Assembly (NCBI GenBank): GCA_945483525.1
Contig: CALYRV010000015.1
Location: 1-24,901, forward strand
DNA: 24,901 nucleotides
Source: an uncultured Verrucomicrobiota bacterium
GTDB taxonomy: Bacteria; Verrucomicrobiota; Kiritimatiellia; RFP12; UBA1067
Reading direction: 5' to 3'
Shown: one piece after another, positions 865-24,360 of the stretch
Layout of the letters: every line of letters starts with the position of its first letter
Numbering within the stretch: the stretch's first letter is position 1
Notes under the pieces: model-generated
Told to the model about the DNA's origin: nothing
The model's database searches: none
What the model saw: only the letters and a program-made list of their open reading frames with translations
Translations under genes and position numbers: made by a program

Positions 865-2373
865 TCATTCGCCGACCGGACAAAGGTACGCCTCCTGTCC
901 GTAGGGAAAGTCACTTGGAATATAATTACCGACTGATGGGCGCACCAACGAATTTGACTTCGGGACATGAGTGAAGATCCAGGGACAGTCCTCGCGAACA
1001 ATCTCCTGACATTTGCGCCAGTACCGATTGCGTTCTTCCTCGGTATTCGCCGCCATCGCCTCGTCATAGGCGCGGTCGTACTCGGGATTAGCATAGCAGC
1101 TGTGATTGGCGCCGGGCGAGACATTAGACGAATGGAATAGCTGCAGAAAGTTCTCAGCATCCGGATAATCGCCCACCCATCCCATCTGATACATCTGAGT
1201 GCGACCTTCGTTAACCGCCTTCATGAATGCCTCCCAAGTATAGAACTGGGTCTCGAGCTTCACGCCGATCTTCGCGTAGAAGCTTGCCATCAGTTCCGCC
1301 CTTTCGCGCGCGTCCTGAGAGGCGCGCCCCATCGACACCGTCAGCACCAGACGGCGTCCGGTCTCCGGATCGATGCCGTCCGGATAACCGGCCTCGGCGA
1401 TCAGCTTTCTCGCCAGCTCCAGATCAAAGCGATACTTGAATGTCTCAGCAGGAAGCGCCGCCGCAACCGTCGGCGGAACCGGCCCGCCGGCTTCCACAGC
1501 ACGGTTTCTGTAGAAGCGGTTCCAGGCTTCGAAATCAAACGCGGCGTTCAGCGCCTGCCGGAGTTTCCTATTCTTGCCGAGCACAGGATCATTCATGTTT
1601 AGTCCGACGTACATTACGGACAGCGTGGGCATCGAATACATCTTCACCCCGGCCTTCAACATATCCGGCGAAAGACTGCCGTCCTTGTCAACAACCGCAT
1701 CCCAGTTGTCCTGCGAAATCTCGCCGAGCACATCCAGCTCTCCGTTCAAGAACATCAGCCACTGCGTGGACATGTCGTCAATGACCAGGAACTTAACGAC
1801 ATCAAAAAGCCTTTCACTCCGAGATTCCCCATTCTTTCTGCGAGTGAAGACCATCTCATGGTTTTTCCACCACTTCGTCAGCTCGAAAGGCCCAGTACCG
1901 GAGCCGTCCGCCTTCATAATGCCGCACCCGCTCATCGCCATGATCCACGGGAATACATGCTGGCGCTTCTTCATCTTGATTTCGACGGTCCGGTCATCGA
2001 GCGCCCTGATCGTATCGACGGACTTCAGATACCAGCCGTTCGGCGACACTATATCCGGATCGCGAAGCCTCTCAAGTGAGCGAACGATGTCTGACGAGTG
2101 CACAATGGACGGGAATCCGTTACCAGTCACGGATTTTTCCCTGATTCTGAAGATGTAAGTAAGGCCGTCTTCGCTGACTTCCGGAAGTTCACAGGCGCCG
2201 GGGACAAGCTTGTACGGGCGCGCATAGTAATCAATGTTCAGGGGTGTTTCATAGATGAGCTGAATGACCTTGGAATCATAGACCGACTGACACTGCGCAG
2301 GGTCGGTCGAAGCCACTCGGTCCATCTGTCTCGCGAAAATGCTCGCGGCCAAAACCACCGACATCAAGAGCAT
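865..2373 (-). CDS. ABC transporter substrate-binding protein, SBP_bac_5 (DppA/OppA) family
   Basis: This looks like a periplasmic binding protein of the peptide/nickel/oligosaccharide class that delivers ligand to an ABC importer. Family features are a DPAQ...VYDSKVIQLIYETPL block near the N-terminus, EDGLTYIFRIRE, a GTGPFEL block, RKLRQALNAAFD in the middle and a GWVGDYPDAENFLQLF segment in the C-terminal half. The length of about 502 residues is slightly short for the family. The N-terminus is a 15-residue hydrophobic stretch with no basic residue before it and no lipobox, which is odd for a signal peptide. The start is either ATG at 2373 (sharing one base with the upstream stop, TGATG) or GTG at 2376 (four-base overlap); no clear Shine-Dalgarno decides. 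The overlap with the lyase-GH88 gene suggests coupled translation and possibly uptake of its products, but no permease or ATPase gene is in view. Confidence 0.88.
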   Translation of the reverse strand: MLLMSVVLAASIFARQMDRVASTDPAQCQSVYDSKVIQLIYETPLNIDYYARPYKLVPGACELPEVSEDGLTYIFRIREKSVTGNGFPSIVHSSDIVRSLERLRDPDIVSPNGWYLKSVDTIRALDDRTVEIKMKKRQHVFPWIMAMSGCGIMKADGSGTGPFELTKWWKNHEMVFTRRKNGESRSERLFDVVKFLVIDDMSTQWLMFLNGELDVLGEISQDNWDAVVDKDGSLSPDMLKAGVKMYSMPTLSVMYVGLNMNDPVLGKNRKLRQALNAAFDFEAWNRFYRNRAVEAGGPVPPTVAAALPAETFKYRFDLELARKLIAEAGYPDGIDPETGRRLVLTVSMGRASQDARERAELMASFYAKIGVKLETQFYTWEAFMKAVNEGRTQMYQMGWVGDYPDAENFLQLFHSSNVSPGANHSCYANPEYDRAYDEAMAANTEEERNRYWRKCQEIVREDCPWIFTHVPKSNSLVRPSVGNYIPSDFPYGQEAYLCPVGE

Positions 2374-5369
2374 CACAGGAGTCCGTCGATGTATTTACGG
2401 AAACGCAGTAGCGCTTCAAGATAGTAGTAATCACCGTAATTGAGCGGAGTGTCAATCTCTCCTCCGGCCGGCTTATGCCCGACGCCGTGCTTCAGCAGAA
2501 AATGTCCAATCTCATCACCCTCCGAAAAGTACTCCGGCGACGAAAGCGTGAGAAGCTGTCTGACCGCGAAAGCGCGGTAGCGCGCGGCATCTTCAGGTCC
2601 AACGAAGCTGGCGAGTTCGAGAAGCGCCGACGCCATACAGCTCGCGGCGGAGCTGTCGCGTTCCTCACCAGGAGCGCCGAAATCCCAGTATGGGACTCCG
2701 TCCGCGGGCATATTGGCATGGTTTATGGCAAAATCGGAGAGCTTTTTCGCGAACTCGAGGTAACGGGTTTCTCCGGTCTCGCGGTACATCATCGTATAGC
2801 CGTAAATGCCCCAGCTCTGTCCGCGACTCCATGCGGTTCGGCAGGATAGGCCCTGTCCGCGGCGGATCTCCTGGACCGTCCCGACAAATCCGGGGCGCTG
2901 ATCATAATTGAGCACATGATAGCAACCGCCGTCCTGACGAAAATGATTGACCATCGACTTGTCCGCATGGCTCTTCGCGACGAGGTCATAGCTCTTGTCG
3001 CTGCTGATGGACGAGGCCACTTCGAGCAGCTCAAGATTCATCATGTTATCCGGAATCACCAGGAACGTCTCTCGATCGTCCTTCTCGCCCCAGCTGCGGA
3101 TGAGTCCGAGCTCAGAACTAAACCGCTGGGAAAGCGTCTTCGCGGTCTGAACCAAGAGCTGGTCGTACTTATCCGTCGCGAGAATCCGCCGCGCGTTGCC
3201 GAGCGAGCAGTTCATGATGAAACCGAGATCGTGATTGGTGTCGGCAGTCGCGTTCGGGGCGAGACGGTCGGTCCACCAGATCGCGCGTTCCCTAAGCTTC
3301 TCATTGCCAGTGCCTTCGTAAAGATACCACAGGGATCCTGGATAGTGTCCAGAAGTCCACCAGTAGATGGACCGCATATCGAGACACTTCTTCGCGCGGT
3401 TAAAACCGTGCGGGAACTGCAGCCGCGTCTTCTCTTTACCCTCGAAAAGATCGTTCGTCGCCACAGCCTGAGGGGTCGCTGCGGCGTCGAGCGCAAGGTA
3501 ATGCGCGGCAGACTTCGCGAAGAGCCCGGGAAGCTTCGCTTTCAGGTCGCGCTCGGCGACCGAAAGCGCCTTCTCGGTGCGGGCGGAGAATTCAAGCACA
3601 CCAGAATCGGGGACGACGGCCGACATCCACGCGCGGTAGAAACCGACGTTAAGACTTTCATAGTCGTGCGGAGGCTTTGAAATGTCCTTAAGCTGCCAGT
3701 CGCACGAACCGATGACGTCGAGCGTCTGTCCAGAGTCCGCGAGATGCAAGACCCTGCCATTAACGGACGGCGAACCATGGACGACGGCTGACCATTCCAC
3801 GACCGAGCCGGGCTTAGCCTCGATATGATCCCTAATCTCGAGGCGGCGCCCCTTGAGTTCCGCGGTGCGAATCACCTTGGTCGCATTCGTGTAGAGTGAG
3901 GTAAGGTCGATCGTCACCTTGTTGAAACCGTGTGGAATAGGATTGACAAAGACACCGTTGCCGCGCCCGATCTGCTCACCATCGTCGATCTTGATGGTAT
4001 TGTGGATAGCGAGGCTATAACGCAGGATCTTCCAACGGTCGGCGCCAGGGAGCCCGTTCCACAAATCAACCTTCGCCTGCTCGAGCTTGTGGTAATCCTC
4101 ACTGCCGAGGTCCCAGAACCAACGGACCCCATCCCGATCAAAGATAAAATTGCCGCCATCCTGATGCGAATGGCTATGTCCAGGGCCACCGCCCTTGATC
4201 GCGAGATACGCTGCGTTCCGATCGTTCCAGGCGGATCGGATGGACGCAACGGGATTGCCTCCGCCGAGGTAAGTCGCGAGTTCGCGTTTAGCTGGCGGTT
4301 GCGGCTCCTTCTCGGGCAGCCAGAACAGCAGCAATGGCATCAGCCGTCCGTAACTGCGGCGGGTCGATCCAGCAGGCTTTTCAGTCATCGCGCGACGCAA
4401 AGCTGGCATCTCGTAGGTAGCGAGGGAGTCTGGACGGTTGAAGTGCTTGGCGAGATAAAAGCTCGCGACGGAGAAAGTACGCGGGGTGAAGGTGAAATGA
4501 ACTTCGGAATCAGAATAGTTGAAATAGGTCCCAAGAGGACCGGTCAGTGTATCAAGGTAGTCGGGCTGTTCGGCGACACCGGGAATACGGTCAAGCCCGT
4601 AAACCGTTCCGCATGCGCTCTCAAGCATCCCTAATGCGCAGCTCAGGTATTCGGTCGCGTATTGCCAGTATCCAGCAGGACCTTCCGGAAAATTTCCGCC
4701 TTCGTAGGACTTAAGCGCATTAGGCATCAATTCGATCGCAGCGGAGATATAATCGTGGGCGAGTTCAGGATATTCATCATAAATCACGAGCGCGGCGGCG
4801 AGGTAACCGGTATGACAGACGAGATTCCAGTTGTTGTTCCAGTCCATCCACCGAGAATTCTCGTGATCTGCTTTGAGCCCCTTTTCGATCAGGGTCCTTC
4901 TGACTGTCTCCCGTTCTGAGGCGGTCAGCTGATCATAGATCCAGTCGTATGTGAGCGCGGCGGCGAACATCGCCTCAGCGGTGTCGAGAAAGTGCGAAGG
5001 ATTCCAATCCGAAAACGAACAAAGAGCGAAGAGCTCACGCTTTGCACGCTCGAGATATCGCCTGTCGTCAGAGATCCGATACGCCATCGAGAGGTGGGTA
5101 AGGCGCGAAACCGCAAGACGGGAGACGCAAAGAAGGCGACGGCCTTCCACCACGCGTTCAACCGGCGGTTCGGTCAACACCGCTTCGGCTTCGGCGAAGA
5201 CCTTGGCACGCACTAAGGCGGCAAGTTCAGACTTGTCCGACCGGATCCGCATGAATTCATCAGCATCCGCAAACAGCTTGGGATGTCCGATCTTGACCTT
5301 GACCTCTGGCGCGGCAACCGCATGAACCGCCAATACCATTACCGCAACTATCGCCATCAAGTTTTTCAT
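2373..5369 (-). CDS. Fused heparinase II/III-like polysaccharide lyase and GH88 unsaturated glucuronyl hydrolase
   Basis: A 998-residue exported enzyme with two catalytic modules. Residues 1-19 are a signal peptide. Residues about 25-600 match the heparinase II/III architecture: an alpha-helical toroid with WNNNWNLVCHTGYL (177-190) and a PEGPAGYWQYATEY segment (228-241), then a beta-sandwich part with the family's histidine motif GHSHSHQDGGNF (397-408). Residues about 605-998 match GH88: WWTSGHYPGSLWYL (670-683), NHDLGF (712-717) and IPDNMMNLELL (772-782), holding the two aspartates expected for catalysis (Asp714 and Asp774), then AWSRGQSWGIYGY (846-858) and a C-terminal NYGDYYYLEALLRF. By family knowledge, a lyase cuts uronic-acid polysaccharides and leaves an unsaturated uronate end that GH88 hydrolyses, so both steps would sit on one chain. 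Substrate and exact PL family cannot be read from sequence. AGGGAGG lies just upstream of the ATG at 5369. The gene follows the DUF721 gene by 15 bases. Confidence 0.9.
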   Translation of the reverse strand: MKNLMAIVAVMVLAVHAVAAPEVKVKIGHPKLFADADEFMRIRSDKSELAALVRAKVFAEAEAVLTEPPVERVVEGRRLLCVSRLAVSRLTHLSMAYRISDDRRYLERAKRELFALCSFSDWNPSHFLDTAEAMFAAALTYDWIYDQLTASERETVRRTLIEKGLKADHENSRWMDWNNNWNLVCHTGYLAAALVIYDEYPELAHDYISAAIELMPNALKSYEGGNFPEGPAGYWQYATEYLSCALGMLESACGTVYGLDRIPGVAEQPDYLDTLTGPLGTYFNYSDSEVHFTFTPRTFSVASFYLAKHFNRPDSLATYEMPALRRAMTEKPAGSTRRSYGRLMPLLLFWLPEKEPQPPAKRELATYLGGGNPVASIRSAWNDRNAAYLAIKGGGPGHSHSHQDGGNFIFDRDGVRWFWDLGSEDYHKLEQAKVDLWNGLPGADRWKILRYSLAIHNTIKIDDGEQIGRGNGVFVNPIPHGFNKVTIDLTSLYTNATKVIRTAELKGRRLEIRDHIEAKPGSVVEWSAVVHGSPSVNGRVLHLADSGQTLDVIGSCDWQLKDISKPPHDYESLNVGFYRAWMSAVVPDSGVLEFSARTEKALSVAERDLKAKLPGLFAKSAAHYLALDAAATPQAVATNDLFEGKEKTRLQFPHGFNRAKKCLDMRSIYWWTSGHYPGSLWYLYEGTGNEKLRERAIWWTDRLAPNATADTNHDLGFIMNCSLGNARRILATDKYDQLLVQTAKTLSQRFSSELGLIRSWGEKDDRETFLVIPDNMMNLELLEVASSISSDKSYDLVAKSHADKSMVNHFRQDGGCYHVLNYDQRPGFVGTVQEIRRGQGLSCRTAWSRGQSWGIYGYTMMYRETGETRYLEFAKKLSDFAINHANMPADGVPYWDFGAPGEERDSSAASCMASALLELASFVGPEDAARYRAFAVRQLLTLSSPEYFSEGDEIGHFLLKHGVGHKPAGGEIDTPLNYGDYYYLEALLRFRKYIDGLL

Positions 5370-5384
5370 ATGCCTCCCTAATCC

Positions 5385-5723
5385 TTAAATCTCGCTATGA
5401 ATCTCCAGTCTAAGCTTAATCGTTCTTGGAGCTCCTGGCAGAGATCCGAGCACGCGCTTGATCGCAGCAAGCCGCGGACGCATCAAATAAAGCGTCGTCG
5501 ACTTGTTGACGTAAAGAACCACAGTGCCGTCATGCCAAGCGCCTGGCCGCGCCGGCAGTTCCGAAAAGAGCCGCGGCCAATTCCGGCAGACTGTGTTGAA
5601 AAACGGATTCTTCTCCGTCCGTAACGTCTTGAGCGATGCTGCAACGGCCGAAGCGAAAGTCGAATGCCGACCCCGTTTTTCGGGTTCGATCGCCCTGCCC
5701 CAGACGTTATCGAGATCCGCCAT
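5385..5723 (-). CDS. DUF721 / DciA-like protein
   Basis: A 112-residue soluble protein. The core HDGTVVLYVNKSTT (64-77), followed by LMRPRLAAIKRVLGSLPG and a final beta strand IKLRLEI, matches the KH-like DUF721 fold. DUF721 includes DciA, which assists loading of the replicative helicase DnaB in bacteria lacking DnaC/DnaI. Whether this short version does that job is inference. The upstream pyrB stop and this ATG share one base (TGATG, 5721-5725), so translation is probably coupled. The lyase-GH88 gene begins 15 bases after its stop. Context gives no further functional clue. Confidence 0.72.
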   Translation of the reverse strand: MADLDNVWGRAIEPEKRGRHSTFASAVAASLKTLRTEKNPFFNTVCRNWPRLFSELPARPGAWHDGTVVLYVNKSTTLYLMRPRLAAIKRVLGSLPGAPRTIKLRLEIHSEI

Positions 5724-8812: not shown

Positions 8813-9691
8813 TCAGGGTAAAGATGAAAGGAGTTCGTCAGTCGTGCGACAGAGTTTGACCACGTTCCAACGGCGGTGCCATGCCGGGAGTAGCTTCCAG
8901 TACGAGATCAGTTCCTTCATCCTCCCCAGCACCGATGCGTCACCAGAAAGCTCTGCCGCGCTCGCCGCGACGTAACGGCGCAACAGCATTCCGATATCAT
9001 CCCGCTCTCCGAGCGAGACGACGAAGGACCGTCCGATCATTAACGAGGTCGAGGACGGAGCTTGAGACCGAGAACAAAGCGGCAGGTCTCCGTTGCGGAC
9101 GAGCGGAATCTTCGCGACCTTCTCAATCTCCGCAAACGCCTCCCAGTCGCACTGTCCGCCGTACATCTGACGGGCAGTGCGAGCGTGGACGGTAAGGAAG
9201 CGTAACGGATATTGGTTAATGATCGGCATCAGTGCCAGAAGTTCGTTAGGACGTTCGATACCAAGACGCGCCTTGACCGAGAATTTCCCTTCGCCCATCA
9301 CGGAGCATCCAGCGTCAAGCATCGCCCGAAGCACGTCCGGTGTCTTCAGCATCCCGGAGCCCCTTCCCTTGCAACGCACCATCGGATACGGACACCCGCA
9401 GTTAAGGTCCGCAGTATCATACCCCGCGCCCTTGACCTTCTCGAGACAGACTTTAAGTGCGGACGGATCTTTGCCGATAAACTGGGGGGTGATTATAAGG
9501 GAATGAGAAACGGGGGATGGGGAGCGGGAAATTGGGAACGCGGACAGTTCGCGGTCCTTAAGCGGATCGTAGCCGTTAATGGCGGCGATGAACGGGGTGA
9601 TGGCTTCAGTGAATCCAGCTTCGCCGATAAGATCCGCGAAGACCTCGCGGAAGCAGCGGATAGTCACGCCTCGGAGCGGTGCGAGGATCAT
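8813..9691 (-). CDS. tRNA-dihydrouridine synthase family protein, with repeat-derived insert
   Basis: An FMN enzyme family that reduces uridine to dihydrouridine in tRNA. The 292 residues contain LAPLRGVTIRCFR (3-15), DLNCGCP (95-101, catalytic Cys100), SVKARLG (138-144, Lys140), TVHARTARQMYGG (167-179, His169), RNGD (199-202) and MIGR (218-221), closest in style to DusC. Two parts look atypical. Residues 52-65 (about PISRSPSPVSHSL) are encoded by six degenerate 7-bp repeats. Residues about 205-216, between RNGD and MIGR where the family has a helix, are low-complexity and encoded by a CTC-rich tract. The reading frame stays open and the catalytic residues remain, so it may be active. The ATG at 9691 overlaps the kinase stop by four bases (ATGA), indicating coupling. 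Confidence 0.85.
   Translation of the reverse strand: MILAPLRGVTIRCFREVFADLIGEAGFTEAITPFIAAINGYDPLKDRELSAFPISRSPSPVSHSLIITPQFIGKDPSALKVCLEKVKGAGYDTADLNCGCPYPMVRCKGRGSGMLKTPDVLRAMLDAGCSVMGEGKFSVKARLGIERPNELLALMPIINQYPLRFLTVHARTARQMYGGQCDWEAFAEIEKVAKIPLVRNGDLPLCSRSQAPSSTSLMIGRSFVVSLGERDDIGMLLRRYVAASAAELSGDASVLGRMKELISYWKLLPAWHRRWNVVKLCRTTDELLSSLP
9498..9539 (-). repeat. Six degenerate 7-bp repeats inside the dihydrouridine synthase gene
   Basis: Read on the minus strand, six consecutive heptamers approximate RTTCCCN, with the first base alternating G, A, G, A, G, A; the array could also be read as three 14-mers. Total length is 42 bases, a multiple of three, so it adds 14 codons without breaking the frame. 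The encoded Ser/Pro-rich stretch lies just before the strand carrying ITPQFIG. Confidence 0.7.
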
Positions 9692-10758
9692 CTTCCAAAA
9701 AGACGGGCGAAAAATCCGCGCCGCCTGCGTTGCTTGAGATTATCAACGAAATTCTTAATTTCGATGTCTTGAGTCTCGAACGAAAGTGTGGGATTATTTG
9801 GAGGCAGGTTCTCAACCAGCTTGCCGATCTTCATCGTCGGTCGCGCCTCGGTATCCGGGGCGAACTCCACCGTGGGCGCACCTAGCGATCCAAAATCGTA
9901 CCCCAAACGTCCGAGTTCCGCGACCAATACCTTGTAATCGCCGATACGGCGATCACGATCCTTATGACACATGCGCCGGATCAACGTAGCCACAGCGGGA
10001 GGAACGGTACGATCAAAATCCCGCACATCTGGCATCGGTTCATCCGAAAGCACTTTCTCAAGAATCTGAGCGGAATTACCTTCCGTGTAGGGACAGGTTC
10101 CAGAGACCATTTCGAAGAAGACGATCCCCAGCGAATAAATATCTGCGCGATGATCGACATCCCCGGAATCCACAGCTTGTTCCGGCGAGATATATACTGG
10201 AGTGCCGAAAACGCTCTGAGTTGCGGTCGCCAGCGTATCGCCGAGCCCAGTCGCCTTGGCAATGCCGAGATCGATGAGCTTTACAGTTCCGTCTGGCAGC
10301 AGCATGATGTTCTCAGGCTTAATGTCGCGGTGAACCACACTGAACTTCTGAGCGGCACCGAGGGCGGAAGCCACCTGCAGGATGATCTTCGCGGCTCGAT
10401 CAGGAGAGAATTTACCGGCGAACCCGAGCACGGTACGAAGGTCTCCTCCCTGGACATAGTCCATGACCAAATAGTAGATTCCGCGATCCTGATCAAAGCC
10501 GCAGCCGTGAACGGCGACAAGATTAGGATGACGAATCTTAATCGCGATCTTCGCCTCGCGAATAAAGCGCTTGACGTATTCCGGATCCTCCTGCGCGACC
10601 TTCGGATAAAGAACCTTCATGGCGAACGGAGTGTCAAGGATCTCATGCCGAACTAGATACACCGCACCGACACCGCCGTGACCAAGCACGCGTTCGACCA
10701 CGTAACCGCGATAATGCTCGCCGACTTTGAATACGTCTTCGTCTGGGGTGCCGTCCAT
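9688..10758 (-). CDS. Soluble Hanks-type serine/threonine protein kinase with basic C-terminal tail
   Basis: A eukaryotic-like protein kinase. In the 356-residue reading it shows the glycine loop GHGGVGAVYLVRH (26-38), Lys48 in AMKVL, Glu68, HRDIKPEN (143-150), DLGIAK (163-168) and SPEQ (191-194) at the activation-segment end. The kinase core ends near residue 280. After it come a threonine-rich linker (APTVEF, ARPTMKIG) and an arginine-rich end (RRRRGFFARLFGR). There is no transmembrane helix and no PASTA repeat, so it is likely cytosolic. I chose ATG 10758 because GAGAGG precedes it by about 8 bases; a GTG at 10779 would overlap the upstream kinase by 20 bases. It lies one base after the second kinase gene's stop and overlaps the Dus-type gene by four. 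Its targets are unknown. Confidence 0.92.
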   Translation of the reverse strand: MDGTPDEDVFKVGEHYRGYVVERVLGHGGVGAVYLVRHEILDTPFAMKVLYPKVAQEDPEYVKRFIREAKIAIKIRHPNLVAVHGCGFDQDRGIYYLVMDYVQGGDLRTVLGFAGKFSPDRAAKIILQVASALGAAQKFSVVHRDIKPENIMLLPDGTVKLIDLGIAKATGLGDTLATATQSVFGTPVYISPEQAVDSGDVDHRADIYSLGIVFFEMVSGTCPYTEGNSAQILEKVLSDEPMPDVRDFDRTVPPAVATLIRRMCHKDRDRRIGDYKVLVAELGRLGYDFGSLGAPTVEFAPDTEARPTMKIGKLVENLPPNNPTLSFETQDIEIKNFVDNLKQRRRRGFFARLFGR

Positions 10759-10759
10759 A

Positions 10760-11620
10760 TCAGATCCTCTCCAGCACACGATTGCAACAGTCGGCGATCC
10801 ATTGCGGAGAGTTCACACGGTTCTCTCGCTTCGGATCGCACATGATTCTGATGATATTGGCGACAACGGCAGGTATCGTAGGCTCGACAGTACGCACGTC
10901 CGGAATCGGTTCATTGGTAACCGCCTTGGCCATGATCTGCACATTTGTCAACGACGGATACGGACGTACTCCTGTCAGCATCTCAAAGAACATTATTCCA
11001 AGAGAATAGATGTCTGCCCGACCGTCAACACCTCTCGGATCCACCATCTGCTCCGGAGCCATGTAGGCAGGAGTACCGACGAAGGCACCAATCTTGGCCG
11101 TAAGAGCCGGCGACATTCCGTCGCCATCAAGCACATTAACCCTCGCGGTGCCCAGATCGGACACACGAAACGATCCGTCGGCAGCGAACATGATGTTCGA
11201 CGGTTTGAGATCTCGATGCACAATCCCGCGAGATTTCGCCCGCTCCAGCAGCAACGCGAGATCGCGCACCAGCGAAACGGCCTTCGCGAGCGGCAACCGC
11301 CCCTGCTCCGCGATCAACTCCGCCAGCGTTCCTCCGGGCACATACTCCATGATTATGTAACATAGCCCGGTGATCGGATCCTCTCCGATATCAAACACCT
11401 TCACCACATTCGGGTGGTCGATTTCCTTCGCGAGCCGCGCCTCCGAAAGGAATCGCTGACGCATCGTATGATCCGCAGCCTTCTCGGGGTCTAGCACTTT
11501 CACCGCACAGAACTCGTGCCGGGATTCGATCTCCAGTAACCACACCTCCGCCATCCCACCCTTGCCGAGCATGCTGACAATGCGGTAATCGCCGAACATC
11601 TCCCCGGACGTTAGGAACAT
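10760..11620 (-). CDS. Soluble Hanks-type serine/threonine protein kinase, minimal
   Basis: A 286-residue kinase consisting of almost only the catalytic domain. Motifs are GKGGMAEVWLLE (19-30), Lys41 in AVKVL, Glu60, HRDLKPSN (135-142), DLGTAR (155-160) and YMAPEQ (186-191), with the GRADIYSLGIMFFEMLTG helix (200-217). There is no membrane segment or accessory domain. The ATG at 11620 is preceded by GGAGGGAAA inside the end of the phosphatase gene, and the genes overlap by 10 bases. It is clearly related to the downstream kinase but diverged, so a tandem duplication followed by specialisation is plausible. With the phosphatase it forms a writer/eraser set. Confidence 0.93.
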   Translation of the reverse strand: MFLTSGEMFGDYRIVSMLGKGGMAEVWLLEIESRHEFCAVKVLDPEKAADHTMRQRFLSEARLAKEIDHPNVVKVFDIGEDPITGLCYIIMEYVPGGTLAELIAEQGRLPLAKAVSLVRDLALLLERAKSRGIVHRDLKPSNIMFAADGSFRVSDLGTARVNVLDGDGMSPALTAKIGAFVGTPAYMAPEQMVDPRGVDGRADIYSLGIMFFEMLTGVRPYPSLTNVQIMAKAVTNEPIPDVRTVEPTIPAVVANIIRIMCDPKRENRVNSPQWIADCCNRVLERI

Positions 11621-12381
11621 TTTCCCTCCACCTCAAGAATAACGAACGAGAAGTTGTCAGGTGCACCACACTTCAGCACCTCCTTGGAGAGAGCGGACTT
11701 GGCGGACTCTAATGCCCCACTTCCTATCAGCTTCAGCAACGACTCGTCAGACACAACGTCGTTGACCCCGTCAGTGCATAATAGATACCTGTCCCCCGGC
11801 TCAACCAACAGCTTCTTCCAGTCTGGACACACCGTATCGCCAGTACCTACGGCTCGGGTGAGAACATGCGACAGCGGATTAGAGCGACTCGCGAAGTCTG
11901 CACCAAAACCGCACTTTCGTCGAAGCTCGGCGCCAACCGAATGGTCTCTGCTTAACTGGGTTATCCCCCCCCTGCGGATACGATATATGCGACTGTCGCC
12001 GACATATCCGAGAACCGCATGTGTCATATCGTCAGGGTCGAACAGCATAACCGCGACCGTGGTTCCCATCTGATCAAACCCCATCGTCTGCGAATAGTCC
12101 CAAATCGCCTCGTTAGAACATATGATGGCATTACACACCGCCTCCATCCGAGCGGCGAAATCATCAGGTTGAATACGGACCATCATGGAGATCTCGGCAC
12201 AGACTATCTCGCTGGCCTTCTCACCGTCCGCCCCGCCCCCCATGCCGTCAGCGACACAATAAGTCAAGTGCGCATCGTCGATCAGCACGTGATCCTCATT
12301 GTTTTCACGGACCAATCCGACCGCACTTTCACTTACGGCGAGTATCCTTGGTTTCGTGTTCTTTTTACCGAATCCGAACAT
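11611..12381 (-). CDS. PP2C-family serine/threonine protein phosphatase
   Basis: A 256-residue metal-dependent phosphatase expected to remove phosphate from Ser/Thr residues, probably those of the two downstream kinases and their targets. PP2C motifs occur in order: VRENNEDHVLI (24-34), ADGMGGG (44-50, Asp45), MGTTVAVML (105-113), GYVGDSRIYRIR (125-136), LSRDHS (143-148), LCTDGVND (201-208, Asp204) and DNFSFVILE (242-250, Asp242). No signal peptide or membrane segment, so cytosolic. The ATG at 12381 has no Shine-Dalgarno, and a TATAAT box ends 10 bases before it, so the mRNA should start almost at the start codon. It heads the unit phosphatase-kinase-kinase-Dus-L,D-transpeptidase. Confidence 0.95.
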   Translation of the reverse strand: MFGFGKKNTKPRILAVSESAVGLVRENNEDHVLIDDAHLTYCVADGMGGGADGEKASEIVCAEISMMVRIQPDDFAARMEAVCNAIICSNEAIWDYSQTMGFDQMGTTVAVMLFDPDDMTHAVLGYVGDSRIYRIRRGGITQLSRDHSVGAELRRKCGFGADFASRSNPLSHVLTRAVGTGDTVCPDWKKLLVEPGDRYLLCTDGVNDVVSDESLLKLIGSGALESAKSALSKEVLKCGAPDNFSFVILEVEGKCS

Positions 12382-23220: not shown

Positions 23221-24360
23221 ATGAAAAAAATCAGCAAGCATTATAAACTTCTCATCTCCCTCGATCAGCGGCATACCGCGAGACAGCGGATCATCGGCGG
23301 CATTTTGCGCTGGAGTATGATTCACATGAACTGGGACGTCGAGTTCGCGTGCGAACCATTGGGCGGGCACAGCGACTTGCGCAAATACCTCGACTGGGGA
23401 GCGGACGCGCTGATCATCGATGAAAGCCACGAGAACCTGACGGATGCCGAACTGCTGAAGATCTCCGGCGGCCGCGTTGTATTCGCCAACTGCCGCGACC
23501 GGAAAATCAAGGGGCTCCTCTACGCGATCCTCGGTTCAGACGACGAGACCATCGGGCGTCGAGCGGCAGAGATCCTGATCAAGAACGGACTCACCAACTT
23601 CGCGTTCGTCCCCTGGTCGTCGCCCTCCCGCTGGAGCAACGGCCGCGGACAGAACTTTGTCAAATTCGTCGAATCAAAAGGCTTCAAGGCGTCCGTCGTC
23701 AACGAGATCTCCGGAGAGGCGCTCAGCGCCCTGCCCAAACCATGCGGAGTCTTCTGCGCCAACGACATCCGCGCGCGGCAGGTCATTCTCGAATGCGGGC
23801 GCTCCGGTATCGCCGTTCCCAAAGACATCCAGGTGCTCGGCGTTGACGACAACGAATTCCTCTGCGACAACACCGACCCCTCAATTTCCTCGGTATTGCT
23901 CGAATTCGACCGCGGCGGCTTCATCTCGGCGGACTGGCTCTCTAAACAAATCAACAAGCCCTGCGAGACCCCGGCGAAACCCGACCTGCTCGTATTCCCC
24001 TGCATTGCGGTGATCGAGCGTCTCTCGACTTGCGGCGTCAACGCCACAATGCGCTATATCGATGTCGCCCGGACCTTTATTCGCAAGAACGGACTCAAGA
24101 ACATCAGCGTCAAAGACGTCGCCGGTGCCGCCGGCGTATCCGTCAGTCTGCTCCAGCGTGACTACCCGAAGATCACAGGGCGCACCATGGTGGAGGAACT
24201 CATCCAGGTCCGCCTCAACGAGACGAAACGGCTGTTGCGCAAGACCACGATGCCAATTGAATCCATCCACACCCTCTGCGGCTTCAAGTCTTCATCCTAC
24301 CTGAAGAACCTCTTCAAGCGCCGCACCGGAAAGACGATGTCCGCCTTCCGCGCACAATAA
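23221..24360 (+). CDS. XylR-like AraC-family transcriptional regulator with periplasmic-binding-type sensor
   Basis: A 379-residue cytosolic regulator. Residues about 8-265 have the LacI/periplasmic-binding-protein-like sensor fold (LLISLDQRHTARQRIIGGILRWS, ADALIIDES, KPCGVFCANDIRARQVILECGRSGIAVPKDI region, VLGVDDNEFLCD). Residues about 275-378 form the AraC double helix-turn-helix (ISVKDVAGAAGVSVSLLQRD, then TMPIESIHTLCGFKSSSYLKNLFKRRTGKTMSAF). This domain order is that of E. coli XylR, whose sensor binds xylose; ligand here is unknown. It is divergent from transketolase across 79 bases, so it may regulate itself and/or tkt. The only Shine-Dalgarno candidate is a CGAG just before ATG 23221, which is weak. 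Such regulators are often numerous in Kiritimatiellota/Lentisphaerota. Confidence 0.9.
   Translation: MKKISKHYKLLISLDQRHTARQRIIGGILRWSMIHMNWDVEFACEPLGGHSDLRKYLDWGADALIIDESHENLTDAELLKISGGRVVFANCRDRKIKGLLYAILGSDDETIGRRAAEILIKNGLTNFAFVPWSSPSRWSNGRGQNFVKFVESKGFKASVVNEISGEALSALPKPCGVFCANDIRARQVILECGRSGIAVPKDIQVLGVDDNEFLCDNTDPSISSVLLEFDRGGFISADWLSKQINKPCETPAKPDLLVFPCIAVIERLSTCGVNATMRYIDVARTFIRKNGLKNISVKDVAGAAGVSVSLLQRDYPKITGRTMVEELIQVRLNETKRLLRKTTMPIESIHTLCGFKSSSYLKNLFKRRTGKTMSAFRAQ

What the first reader, a model, noticed from the sequence alone, without database searches (positions are those of the whole stretch)
2373..5369. Polysaccharide lyase and GH88 hydrolase fused in one exported chain
One open frame of 998 residues carries a heparinase II/III-like lyase (histidine motif at 397-408) followed by a full GH88 module with both expected aspartates (714, 774). 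GH88 acts on the unsaturated uronate that a lyase leaves, so the two steps would be physically linked. These activities are more commonly encoded by separate neighbouring genes, with GH88 often cytosolic; here the signal peptide would place GH88 outside the cytosol. Substrate is unknown.
Basis: partly seen in the sequence, partly recalled or inferred. Interest (0 to 1): 0.75.

Follow-up and report, generated by a model that had tools for sequence, protein, structure and literature searches.

The report
Lyase fused to its follow-up hydrolase
One exported bacterial enzyme appears to join a glycosaminoglycan-cutting lyase to the hydrolase that removes the unsaturated sugar the lyase leaves, one of several such fusions found in this group of bacteria.

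Summary
On the minus strand, 2373..5369 is one 998-codon frame: a signal-peptide-like start, a PL35-type glycosaminoglycan lyase (residues ~26-601) and a GH88 unsaturated-uronyl hydrolase (~602-998), almost without linker. The published PL35 catalytic and Mn-site residues and both GH88 aspartates are present. An 88%-identical protein has the same length and junction, so an assembly error is unlikely.

The host is a Kiritimatiellia bacterium. Glycosaminoglycans are the likely substrate, chondroitin/hyaluronan type favoured over alginate.

The exact fusion is rare: 2 of 120 listed PL35 relatives, both the window's own lineage. It belongs to a wider pattern: related GH88 modules are fused, at either end, to PL33-like and other heparinase-like lyases, DUF4861, a glucuronate dehydratase and others. 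One protein is PL35-GH20-GH88; another PL35 is fused to a GH105-like hydrolase. In six fetched relatives the genes flanking the fusion are direct neighbours, so it sits as an insertion in a housekeeping gene pair.

The separate PL35 and GH88 steps are published; I found no paper on their fusion. New variant of a known kind, moderately interesting. Activity and coupling untested.

The parts
2373..5369 (-). whole fusion gene, 998 codons plus stop: signal peptide - PL35 lyase - GH88 hydrolase
5373..5379 (-). Shine-Dalgarno-like AGGGAGG before the ATG at 5369
   Evidence: read from the sequence
5310..5369 (-). signal-peptide-like N terminus, residues 1-20 (Lys, hydrophobic run, AVAA)
   Evidence: by eye; crude hydropathy 3.4 against 0.6 for TrpRS and -0.82 for LeuRS; pLDDT under 50 at 2-6 and 9-18; no signal-peptide predictor was available
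3567..5294 (-). PL35-type glycosaminoglycan lyase, residues 26-601
4830..4832 (-). N180, the carboxylate neutraliser (N192 in GAGase II)
   Evidence: residue from PMC12088678
4668..4670 (-). Y234, catalytic Tyr (Y246 in GAGase II)
4170..4172 (-). H400, catalytic His (H401 in GAGase II); H402, D404, D420, H456 match the Mn-site residues
2376..3566 (-). GH88 unsaturated-uronyl hydrolase, residues 602-998
3228..3230 (-). D714, aligned with D88 of Bacillus UGL (Asn at that column in the mutant sequence 2ahf; its further entry 2fv0 is titled UGL_D88N)
   Evidence: D in 105 of 105 modules
3048..3050 (-). D774, aligned with Asp149 of the Bacillus UGL chain 1vd5 (counted on the printed alignment)
   Evidence: D in 105 of 105 modules
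865..2376 (-). SBP_bac_5 solute-binding protein; a possible ATG at 2373 overlaps the fusion's stop (TGATG), the listed start being GTG at 2376. A housekeeping-type neighbour, not part of the enzyme
5385..5723 (-). 112-aa ORF without a Pfam or NCBIfam hit at E<=0.01; its homologue lies directly before the SBP gene in the six relatives fetched

Best explanation
The gene encodes an exported two-step enzyme for uronic-acid glycosaminoglycans, most likely chondroitin- or hyaluronan-type. The N-terminal PL35 module cuts the chain by beta-elimination (Asn/Tyr/His, Mn-stabilised). This leaves a 4,5-unsaturated uronate at each new non-reducing end. The C-terminal GH88 module, joined by about three residues, hydrolyses that uronate to 5-keto-4-deoxyuronate and leaves a hexosamine end for an exo-hexosaminidase. 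Fusion guarantees joint export in equal amounts and puts product removal next to product formation. Shown here by computation: the two modules, their conserved catalytic residues, the folds, a single gene also seen in P0002/P0003, and recurrence of the pairing. Inferred: activities, substrate, cell compartment (periplasm or surface) and any kinetic benefit. Also inferred: the fusion arose in this Kiritimatiellia lineage when a GH88 gene without its signal peptide was joined to a PL35 gene, and the product came to lie between two co-directional housekeeping genes.
For: PDB sequence and fold matches for both halves. Residue conservation: PL35 N180/Y234/H400 and the Mn site, GH88 D714/D774. AF2 model of the whole chain, pLDDT 90.2, pTM 0.80, strand 591-600 followed by helix 604-634. 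Same fusion in P0003, 122 of 998 residues different. Separate BcPL35 and BcGH88 act in sequence on chondroitin (PMC12269599). An unfused GH88 and a PL35-like lyase are neighbouring frames in L013, and lie within about 1.2 kb in L049 and 3.5 kb in L033. P0004 carries PL35, GH20 and GH88 in one chain; GH20 would be the next enzyme needed for beta-hexosamine ends (family knowledge, recalled). P0171 joins a GH105-like hydrolase to a PL35. The residue that gives GAGase III its alginate activity (His188) corresponds to GAGase II Asn191 and aligns with N179 here, not His.
Against: No activity was measured. The closest solved GH88 (3wiw) is titled specific for heparin, which would point to heparan sulfate, whose hexosamine is alpha-linked (recalled). 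PL35 enzymes act on HA, CS and HS, so the substrate stays open. The tool returned neither coordinates nor PAE, so the relative placement of the two active sites was not examined. GH88 modules are also fused to partners not known to make unsaturated uronates (GH2, GH28, GH39-like, GH95), so 'substrate hand-over' does not explain every fusion. The exact PL35-GH88 architecture is rare, and most GH88 places in the class are unfused.
Confidence: 0.72

Rival explanations
1. Two ordinary enzymes share a chain only for joint export and dosage; there is no hand-over between the active sites.
For: Many different partners and both orders occur: the 105 GH88-bearing records of the listing (the query included) have 44 N-terminal and 66 C-terminal partner segments. 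The hinge is short, but no inter-site geometry was seen.
Against: Of those 110 segments 67 are lyase-like: 57 in one heparinase-like cluster (two members tested match PL33 structures), 4 PL35-type and 6 other heparinase-like. So partners that would make the GH88 substrate are the majority; a dehydratase that makes it is also fused (P0101).
Confidence: 0.4
2. GH88 is used here mainly as a sugar-binding or scaffold module that lost or does not need its activity.
For: It is attached to very diverse partners.
Against: Both catalytic aspartates are present in 105 of 105 modules, and 68 positions are at least 99% conserved.
Confidence: 0.05
3. The substrate is not a glycosaminoglycan but another uronate polymer (alginate, glucuronan, a plant or bacterial polysaccharide of the herbivore gut).
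For: Several relatives' record titles name rumen, goat, sheep, water deer or horse sources, and GH28, GH95 and GH2 partners of related modules would fit plant polymers (inference); one PL35 (GAGase III) cuts alginate weakly.
Against: The PL35 enzymes in the passages seen act on GAGs; N179 is Asn where the alginate-active enzyme has His.
Confidence: 0.2
4. Artefact: an assembly join or a missed stop between two genes.
For: No whole genome is held for the window, so the source is probably a metagenome record.
Against: P0002 and P0003 have the same length and an ungapped junction; the GH88 half has no hydrophobic leader of its own at the junction (0.81 in the crude test against 1.8 used as cut-off).
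Confidence: 0.02

Closest known systems
BcPL35 + BcGH88 of Bacteroides caccae PUL25 (PMC12269599)
   Same: Same two families used in the same order on one polymer; GH88 removes the unsaturated uronate made by PL35
   Different: Two separate proteins there, in a PUL with a glucuronate dehydratase and GH109; here one chain, in a housekeeping neighbourhood
GAGase II / GAGase VII (PL35; 8khv, 8khw; PMC12088678)
   Different: Single-module enzymes (PDB chains of 614 and 618 residues); 31% and 29% identity to the window's lyase in the structural alignment
GH88 unsaturated glucuronyl hydrolases (3wiw, 1vd5)
   Same: Fold and both catalytic aspartates
   Different: Free-standing chains of 402 and 377 residues; the one nearest to the window's module is titled heparin-specific
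P0004, PL35-GH20-GH88 (1576 aa)
   Same: Same two modules in the same order
   Different: A GH20 hexosaminidase lies between them; its lyase is not sister to the window's (AU p 9e-94), though a shared origin of the GH88 modules is not rejected (p 0.606)
P0171, GH105-like hydrolase - PL35 (992 aa)
   Same: An unsaturated-uronyl hydrolase and PL35 in one chain
   Different: The hydrolase is closest to 4ce7, titled GH105, instead of GH88, and is placed at the N terminus

Membership tests
PL35 | sequence similarity to characterised members | tested here: met
   8khv E 2.4e-93, 8khw E 1.7e-75, 9o3q E 3.8e-67
PL35 | (alpha/alpha)6 toroid plus C-terminal beta-sheet domain | tested here: met
PL35 | catalytic Asn/Tyr/His | tested here: met
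   N180, Y234, H400 (residues from PMC12088678)
PL35 | Mn-site residues His403, Asp405, Asp421, His457 | tested here: met
   H402, D404, D420, H456
PL35 | lyase activity on GAGs, 232-nm product | not testable with these tools
   no assay
GH88 | homology to unsaturated glucuronyl hydrolases | tested here: met
   3wiw E 4.6e-76, 1vd5 E 3.5e-47
GH88 | two catalytic aspartates (D88, D149 in Bacillus UGL; that these two are catalytic is recalled, D88N is in a PDB title) | tested here: met
   D714 and D774; 105 of 105 modules
GH88 | Pfam Glyco_hydro_88 above its cut-off | tested here: not met
   no PF07470 hit at E<=0.01 for the whole protein; a relative, P0006, scores 20.4 against a cut-off of 26.6. 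The Pfam model appears weak for this branch; the PDB matches outweigh it
GH88 | hydrolysis of unsaturated disaccharides | not testable with these tools
   no assay
polysaccharide utilisation locus | CAZyme genes clustered with transport/regulation for one glycan, within the window | tested here: not met
   the neighbours scanned are iPGM, SBP_bac_5, ATCase, TrpRS, Dus, LeuRS and the like; an SBP homologue is found in 214 of 288 genomes of the class. Only 2.4 kb are visible on the downstream side

The most novel reading that the evidence does not exclude
In gut Kiritimatiellia the GH88 hydrolase behaves as a portable finishing module. It has been joined many times, at either end, to enzymes that create or expose unsaturated uronates (PL35, PL33-like, heparinase-like, glucuronate dehydratase), building one-chain 'peelers'. 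The most complete, PL35-GH20-GH88, could carry out three consecutive steps of chondroitin/hyaluronan breakdown. The fusions would be selected for fast removal of the unsaturated end at the site where it is made.
Probability: 0.35. Interest if true: 0.65.

Novelty: new variant of a known kind. Interest (0 to 1): 0.5.

Why it matters
In the papers seen, the lyase and uronyl-hydrolase steps are carried by separate proteins. A natural fusion gives a ready test of whether physical coupling of these two steps changes the rate or the product pattern. It could also serve as a single-enzyme tool for making GAG fragments without unsaturated ends. The recurrence with different lyases, a dehydratase, GH20 and a GH105-like enzyme suggests that coupling is selected. 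It also gives Rosetta-stone hints to the function of partners such as DUF4861, for which the paper search returned nothing.

Tried and rejected
Rejected: that adjacency of the SBP_bac_5 gene shows uptake of the enzyme's products. A homologue at E<=1e-60 is found in 214 of 288 class-mate genomes, and in 6 of 6 fetched regions (of those 214 genomes) it sits next to the small ORF without a lyase gene between. Rejected: recent foreign origin by composition; the two halves have GC 0.56-0.58 and third-position GC 0.65-0.69, within the range of the 13 other genes measured. Rejected: GH88 as a catalytically dead module.

Not settled: whether the GH88 modules of the window and of P0004 share one origin. 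The free quick tree separates them, but the tree with them held together scored 10.6 log-likelihood units better (the free search missed it) and the AU test does not reject one clade (p 0.606). The lyase halves do reject it (p 9e-94; long branches present). The GH88 trees are FastTree/quick trees, so the counts of changes are rough. Rows dropped before the 184-row tree: loci with a cut or broken module (L012, L022, L030, L034, L037, L038, L058), duplicates of the same contig (L068-L077, L079-L088), L093-L095, L098 and L099 (cut or fetched again), L139 and L140 (L140 is the same contig as L040, which was kept). For the 83-row tree PL33_C, DUF4861_C and free rows were sampled and L138 and L040 left out.

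Limits of the counts: one search's list of 120 (of 692) misses P0004, P0007 and P0009, which one search had found with PL35 halves, so candidate selection differs between searches. In one search the tool scored at most 4 candidates per genome. Frames run from stop to stop and some are cut by contig ends. That PL35-GH88 is absent from the 12 longer regions fetched afterwards rests on a BLAST of the lyase half. Of loci L001-L067, 38 of 67 hold a frame resembling a fusion partner besides the GH88 frame; 29 do not, in stretches of unequal length.

Literature on a PL-GH88 fusion: searches showed none in the titles and abstract starts listed. 'Find' gave GH88 0 in PMC12088678, PMC11848413 and PMC11262172; 'fused'/'fusion' gave 0 or unrelated uses there and in PMC12269599 ('fusion' was not asked in PMC12088678). 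Subscription journals and the CAZy site were not available.

Full report

Both active sites look intact. From PMC12088678 (outline and passages) the PL35 catalytic residues are Asn192, Tyr246 and His401, and the residues at the Mn that were mutated are His403, Asp405, Asp421 and His457. They align with N180, Y234, H400, H402, D404, D420 and H456. Of 20 GAGase II positions mapped, some outer-pocket ones differ: R188, Y240, Q307, E428 and M440 align with D176, F227, T295, H427 and G439. The position of the His that gives GAGase III weak alginate activity is N179 here. For GH88, D714 aligns with the position that is Asn in the D88N sequence of Bacillus UGL, and D774 with D149. Both are Asp in 105 of 105 related modules.

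It is a real gene, not a join. P0002 (4 of 998 residues different) and P0003 (122 of 998 different, no gaps) have the same architecture. The junction falls near where the mature N terminus of unfused GH88s begins, as if GH88 had lost only its signal peptide (inference).

How rare is it? The search with residues 1-600 gave 692 proteins at E<=1e-3, of which 120 were listed. Of these 120, two (P0002, P0003) carry this GH88, by BLAST and by an HMM of the modules. Two others (P0171, P0127) carry another PF07470-type hydrolase; the closest solved relatives are 4ce7 (titled GH105) for P0171 and 3k11 (not family-labelled, then GH88/GH105-named entries) for P0127. P0004, listed but not, is PL35-GH20-GH88. 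In 288 sampled genomes of the same class, 46 have this GH88 at E<=1e-60 (58 places) and 69 have a PL35 at E<=1e-60. No listed place of the two shares a frame. In one genome (G010 contig C174, the same contig as L013) they are neighbouring frames, in the order GH88 then PL35.

The wider pattern. The listing (120 of 289 hits, plus the query; lengths limited to 549-1746 aa by the tool, so free-standing GH88s could not appear) holds 105 records with this GH88, the query included. They carry 110 partner segments of at least 120 aa: 44 N-terminal, 66 C-terminal, 5 records with both. By BLAST clustering 57 segments are one heparinase-like cluster (two members tested, P0014 and P0058, match the PL33 structures 8r73/8r75), 23 are DUF4861, 4 PL35-type and 6 other heparinase-like. 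The remaining 20 are single or paired types. These include GH2, GH28, GH95, AXE1, beta-lactamase-like and DUF4838, and in P0101 a domain matching the glucuronate dehydratase 9o4u at E 1.3e-117, and 8oi4, named beta-galactosidase, at E 2.4e-144. PMC12269599 argues that this whole family, GH154, are dehydratases. In the 288 genomes 16 of 58 GH88 places lie in frames of 650 codons or more, so unfused GH88 is the commoner state. Partners seen there include PL33-like, DUF4861, a GH39/GH42-like domain (five genomes), a nucleoside-hydrolase-like domain, and GH97, GH43 and heparinase-like domains in one 2081-codon frame. On a FastTree of 184 modules the 13 partner labels need at least 54 changes, and 'alone versus fused' 20 (15 forced by starred branches). 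On an IQ-TREE quick tree of 83 of those rows the window's clade is sister to two DUF4861-GH88 proteins, with free GH88s (L004, L009) next; a better-scoring tree exists, see below. In 38 of 67 loci around GH88 relatives a further frame resembles a fusion partner. Examples: PL33-like (L014, L011), PL35-like (L013, L049), dehydratase (L035, L043, L044, L048), DUF4861 (L053, L054), heparinase (L025).

One or more origins. In a lyase tree of 54 rows the window's lyase is sister to P0005 (606 aa, no GH88 in the protein; its contig is only 2745 bases, so a neighbouring GH88 gene is not excluded; support 96*). Holding it together with the P0004 lyase is rejected (AU p 9e-94). On the GH88 side the same grouping is not rejected (p 0.606), and the held tree scored 10.6 log-likelihood units better than the free one. 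So the lyase of P0004 was probably recruited separately, while a shared GH88 ancestor remains possible. The GH105-like - PL35 protein shows the pairing arising with another hydrolase and the other order.

Neighbourhood. The gene lies among housekeeping genes (iPGM, SBP_bac_5, ATCase, TrpRS, YkuD, Dus, kinases, LpxL, LeuRS, PlsX). In 6 of 6 fetched relatives that carry the SBP homologue, the 112-aa ORF homologue lies directly before it with no lyase between. In the window the fusion gene lies exactly between them and shares a TGATG stop/start with the SBP gene. Composition is ordinary. LeuRS is 92% identical over 309 of 861 residues to a partial gene of G004 and 89% to G269 and G274 over the full length, which places the window in the class of G002, whose record is titled Kiritimatiellae.

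How it likely works. PL35 cuts; GH88 removes the unsaturated uronate from the new non-reducing end. The two separate B. caccae enzymes do this in sequence on chondroitin (PMC12269599, sections 'BcGH88 works in tandem with BcPL35' and 'Discussion'). Why fuse them is inference: one export event, fixed ratio, and fast removal of lyase product. PMC8511951 notes product inhibition in ulvan degradation (passage). Substrate: the PL35s in the passages seen act on HA, CS and HS, or prefer chondroitin. GH20 in P0004 fits beta-linked hexosamine (HA, chondroitin; family knowledge), but the nearest solved GH88 is titled heparin-specific. I favour chondroitin/HA at about 0.6.

Novelty. Each half is a new member of a known family. 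The exact fusion and the recurrent GH88 fusions were not found in print by the searches (listings) and the 'find'. I file it as a new variant of a known kind (multimodular carbohydrate-active enzyme).

Noticed in passing
P0101 (793 aa); L035, L043, L044, L048: A GH88 fused to a domain matching beta-D-glucuronic acid dehydratase (9o4u, E 1.3e-117), and frames resembling that domain beside unfused GH88 in Bacteroidota; the dehydratase makes the GH88 substrate from saturated ends.
   Followed up: partly
P0006, P0008, P0020 and others; L053:8422-9750, L054:3659-4957: DUF4861, with no paper in the held library, is the second most common GH88 partner and also a neighbour of unfused GH88; its model (pLDDT 73) looks like a mutarotase-like beta-sandwich. 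Function unknown.
   Followed up: partly
P0004 (1576 aa): PL35-GH20-GH88 in one chain: lyase, hexosaminidase and unsaturated-uronyl hydrolase; the lyase's catalytic and Mn-site residues are kept.
   Followed up: partly
L140:2408-8650 (-): A 2081-codon frame with GH97, GH43, heparinase-like and GH88 domains.
   Followed up: no
L130-L134: GH88 behind an N-terminal GH39/GH42-like domain in frames of 1017-1050 codons in five class-mate genomes; two scanned by Pfam, the other three 44-95% identical to these over the N-terminal part.
   Followed up: partly
window 23221-24360 (+): Regulator with a LacI/RbsR-like sensor part and an AraC-type C terminus (partial matches below the cut-offs), on the plus strand unlike the other genes named here.
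   Followed up: no
window 9691-12381 (-): Two adjacent Ser/Thr protein kinases next to a PP2C-type phosphatase, in overlapping frames.
   Followed up: no
L038:9950-11310: A GH88 split over two frames around a run of masked bases, probably a gap in the record.
   Followed up: no
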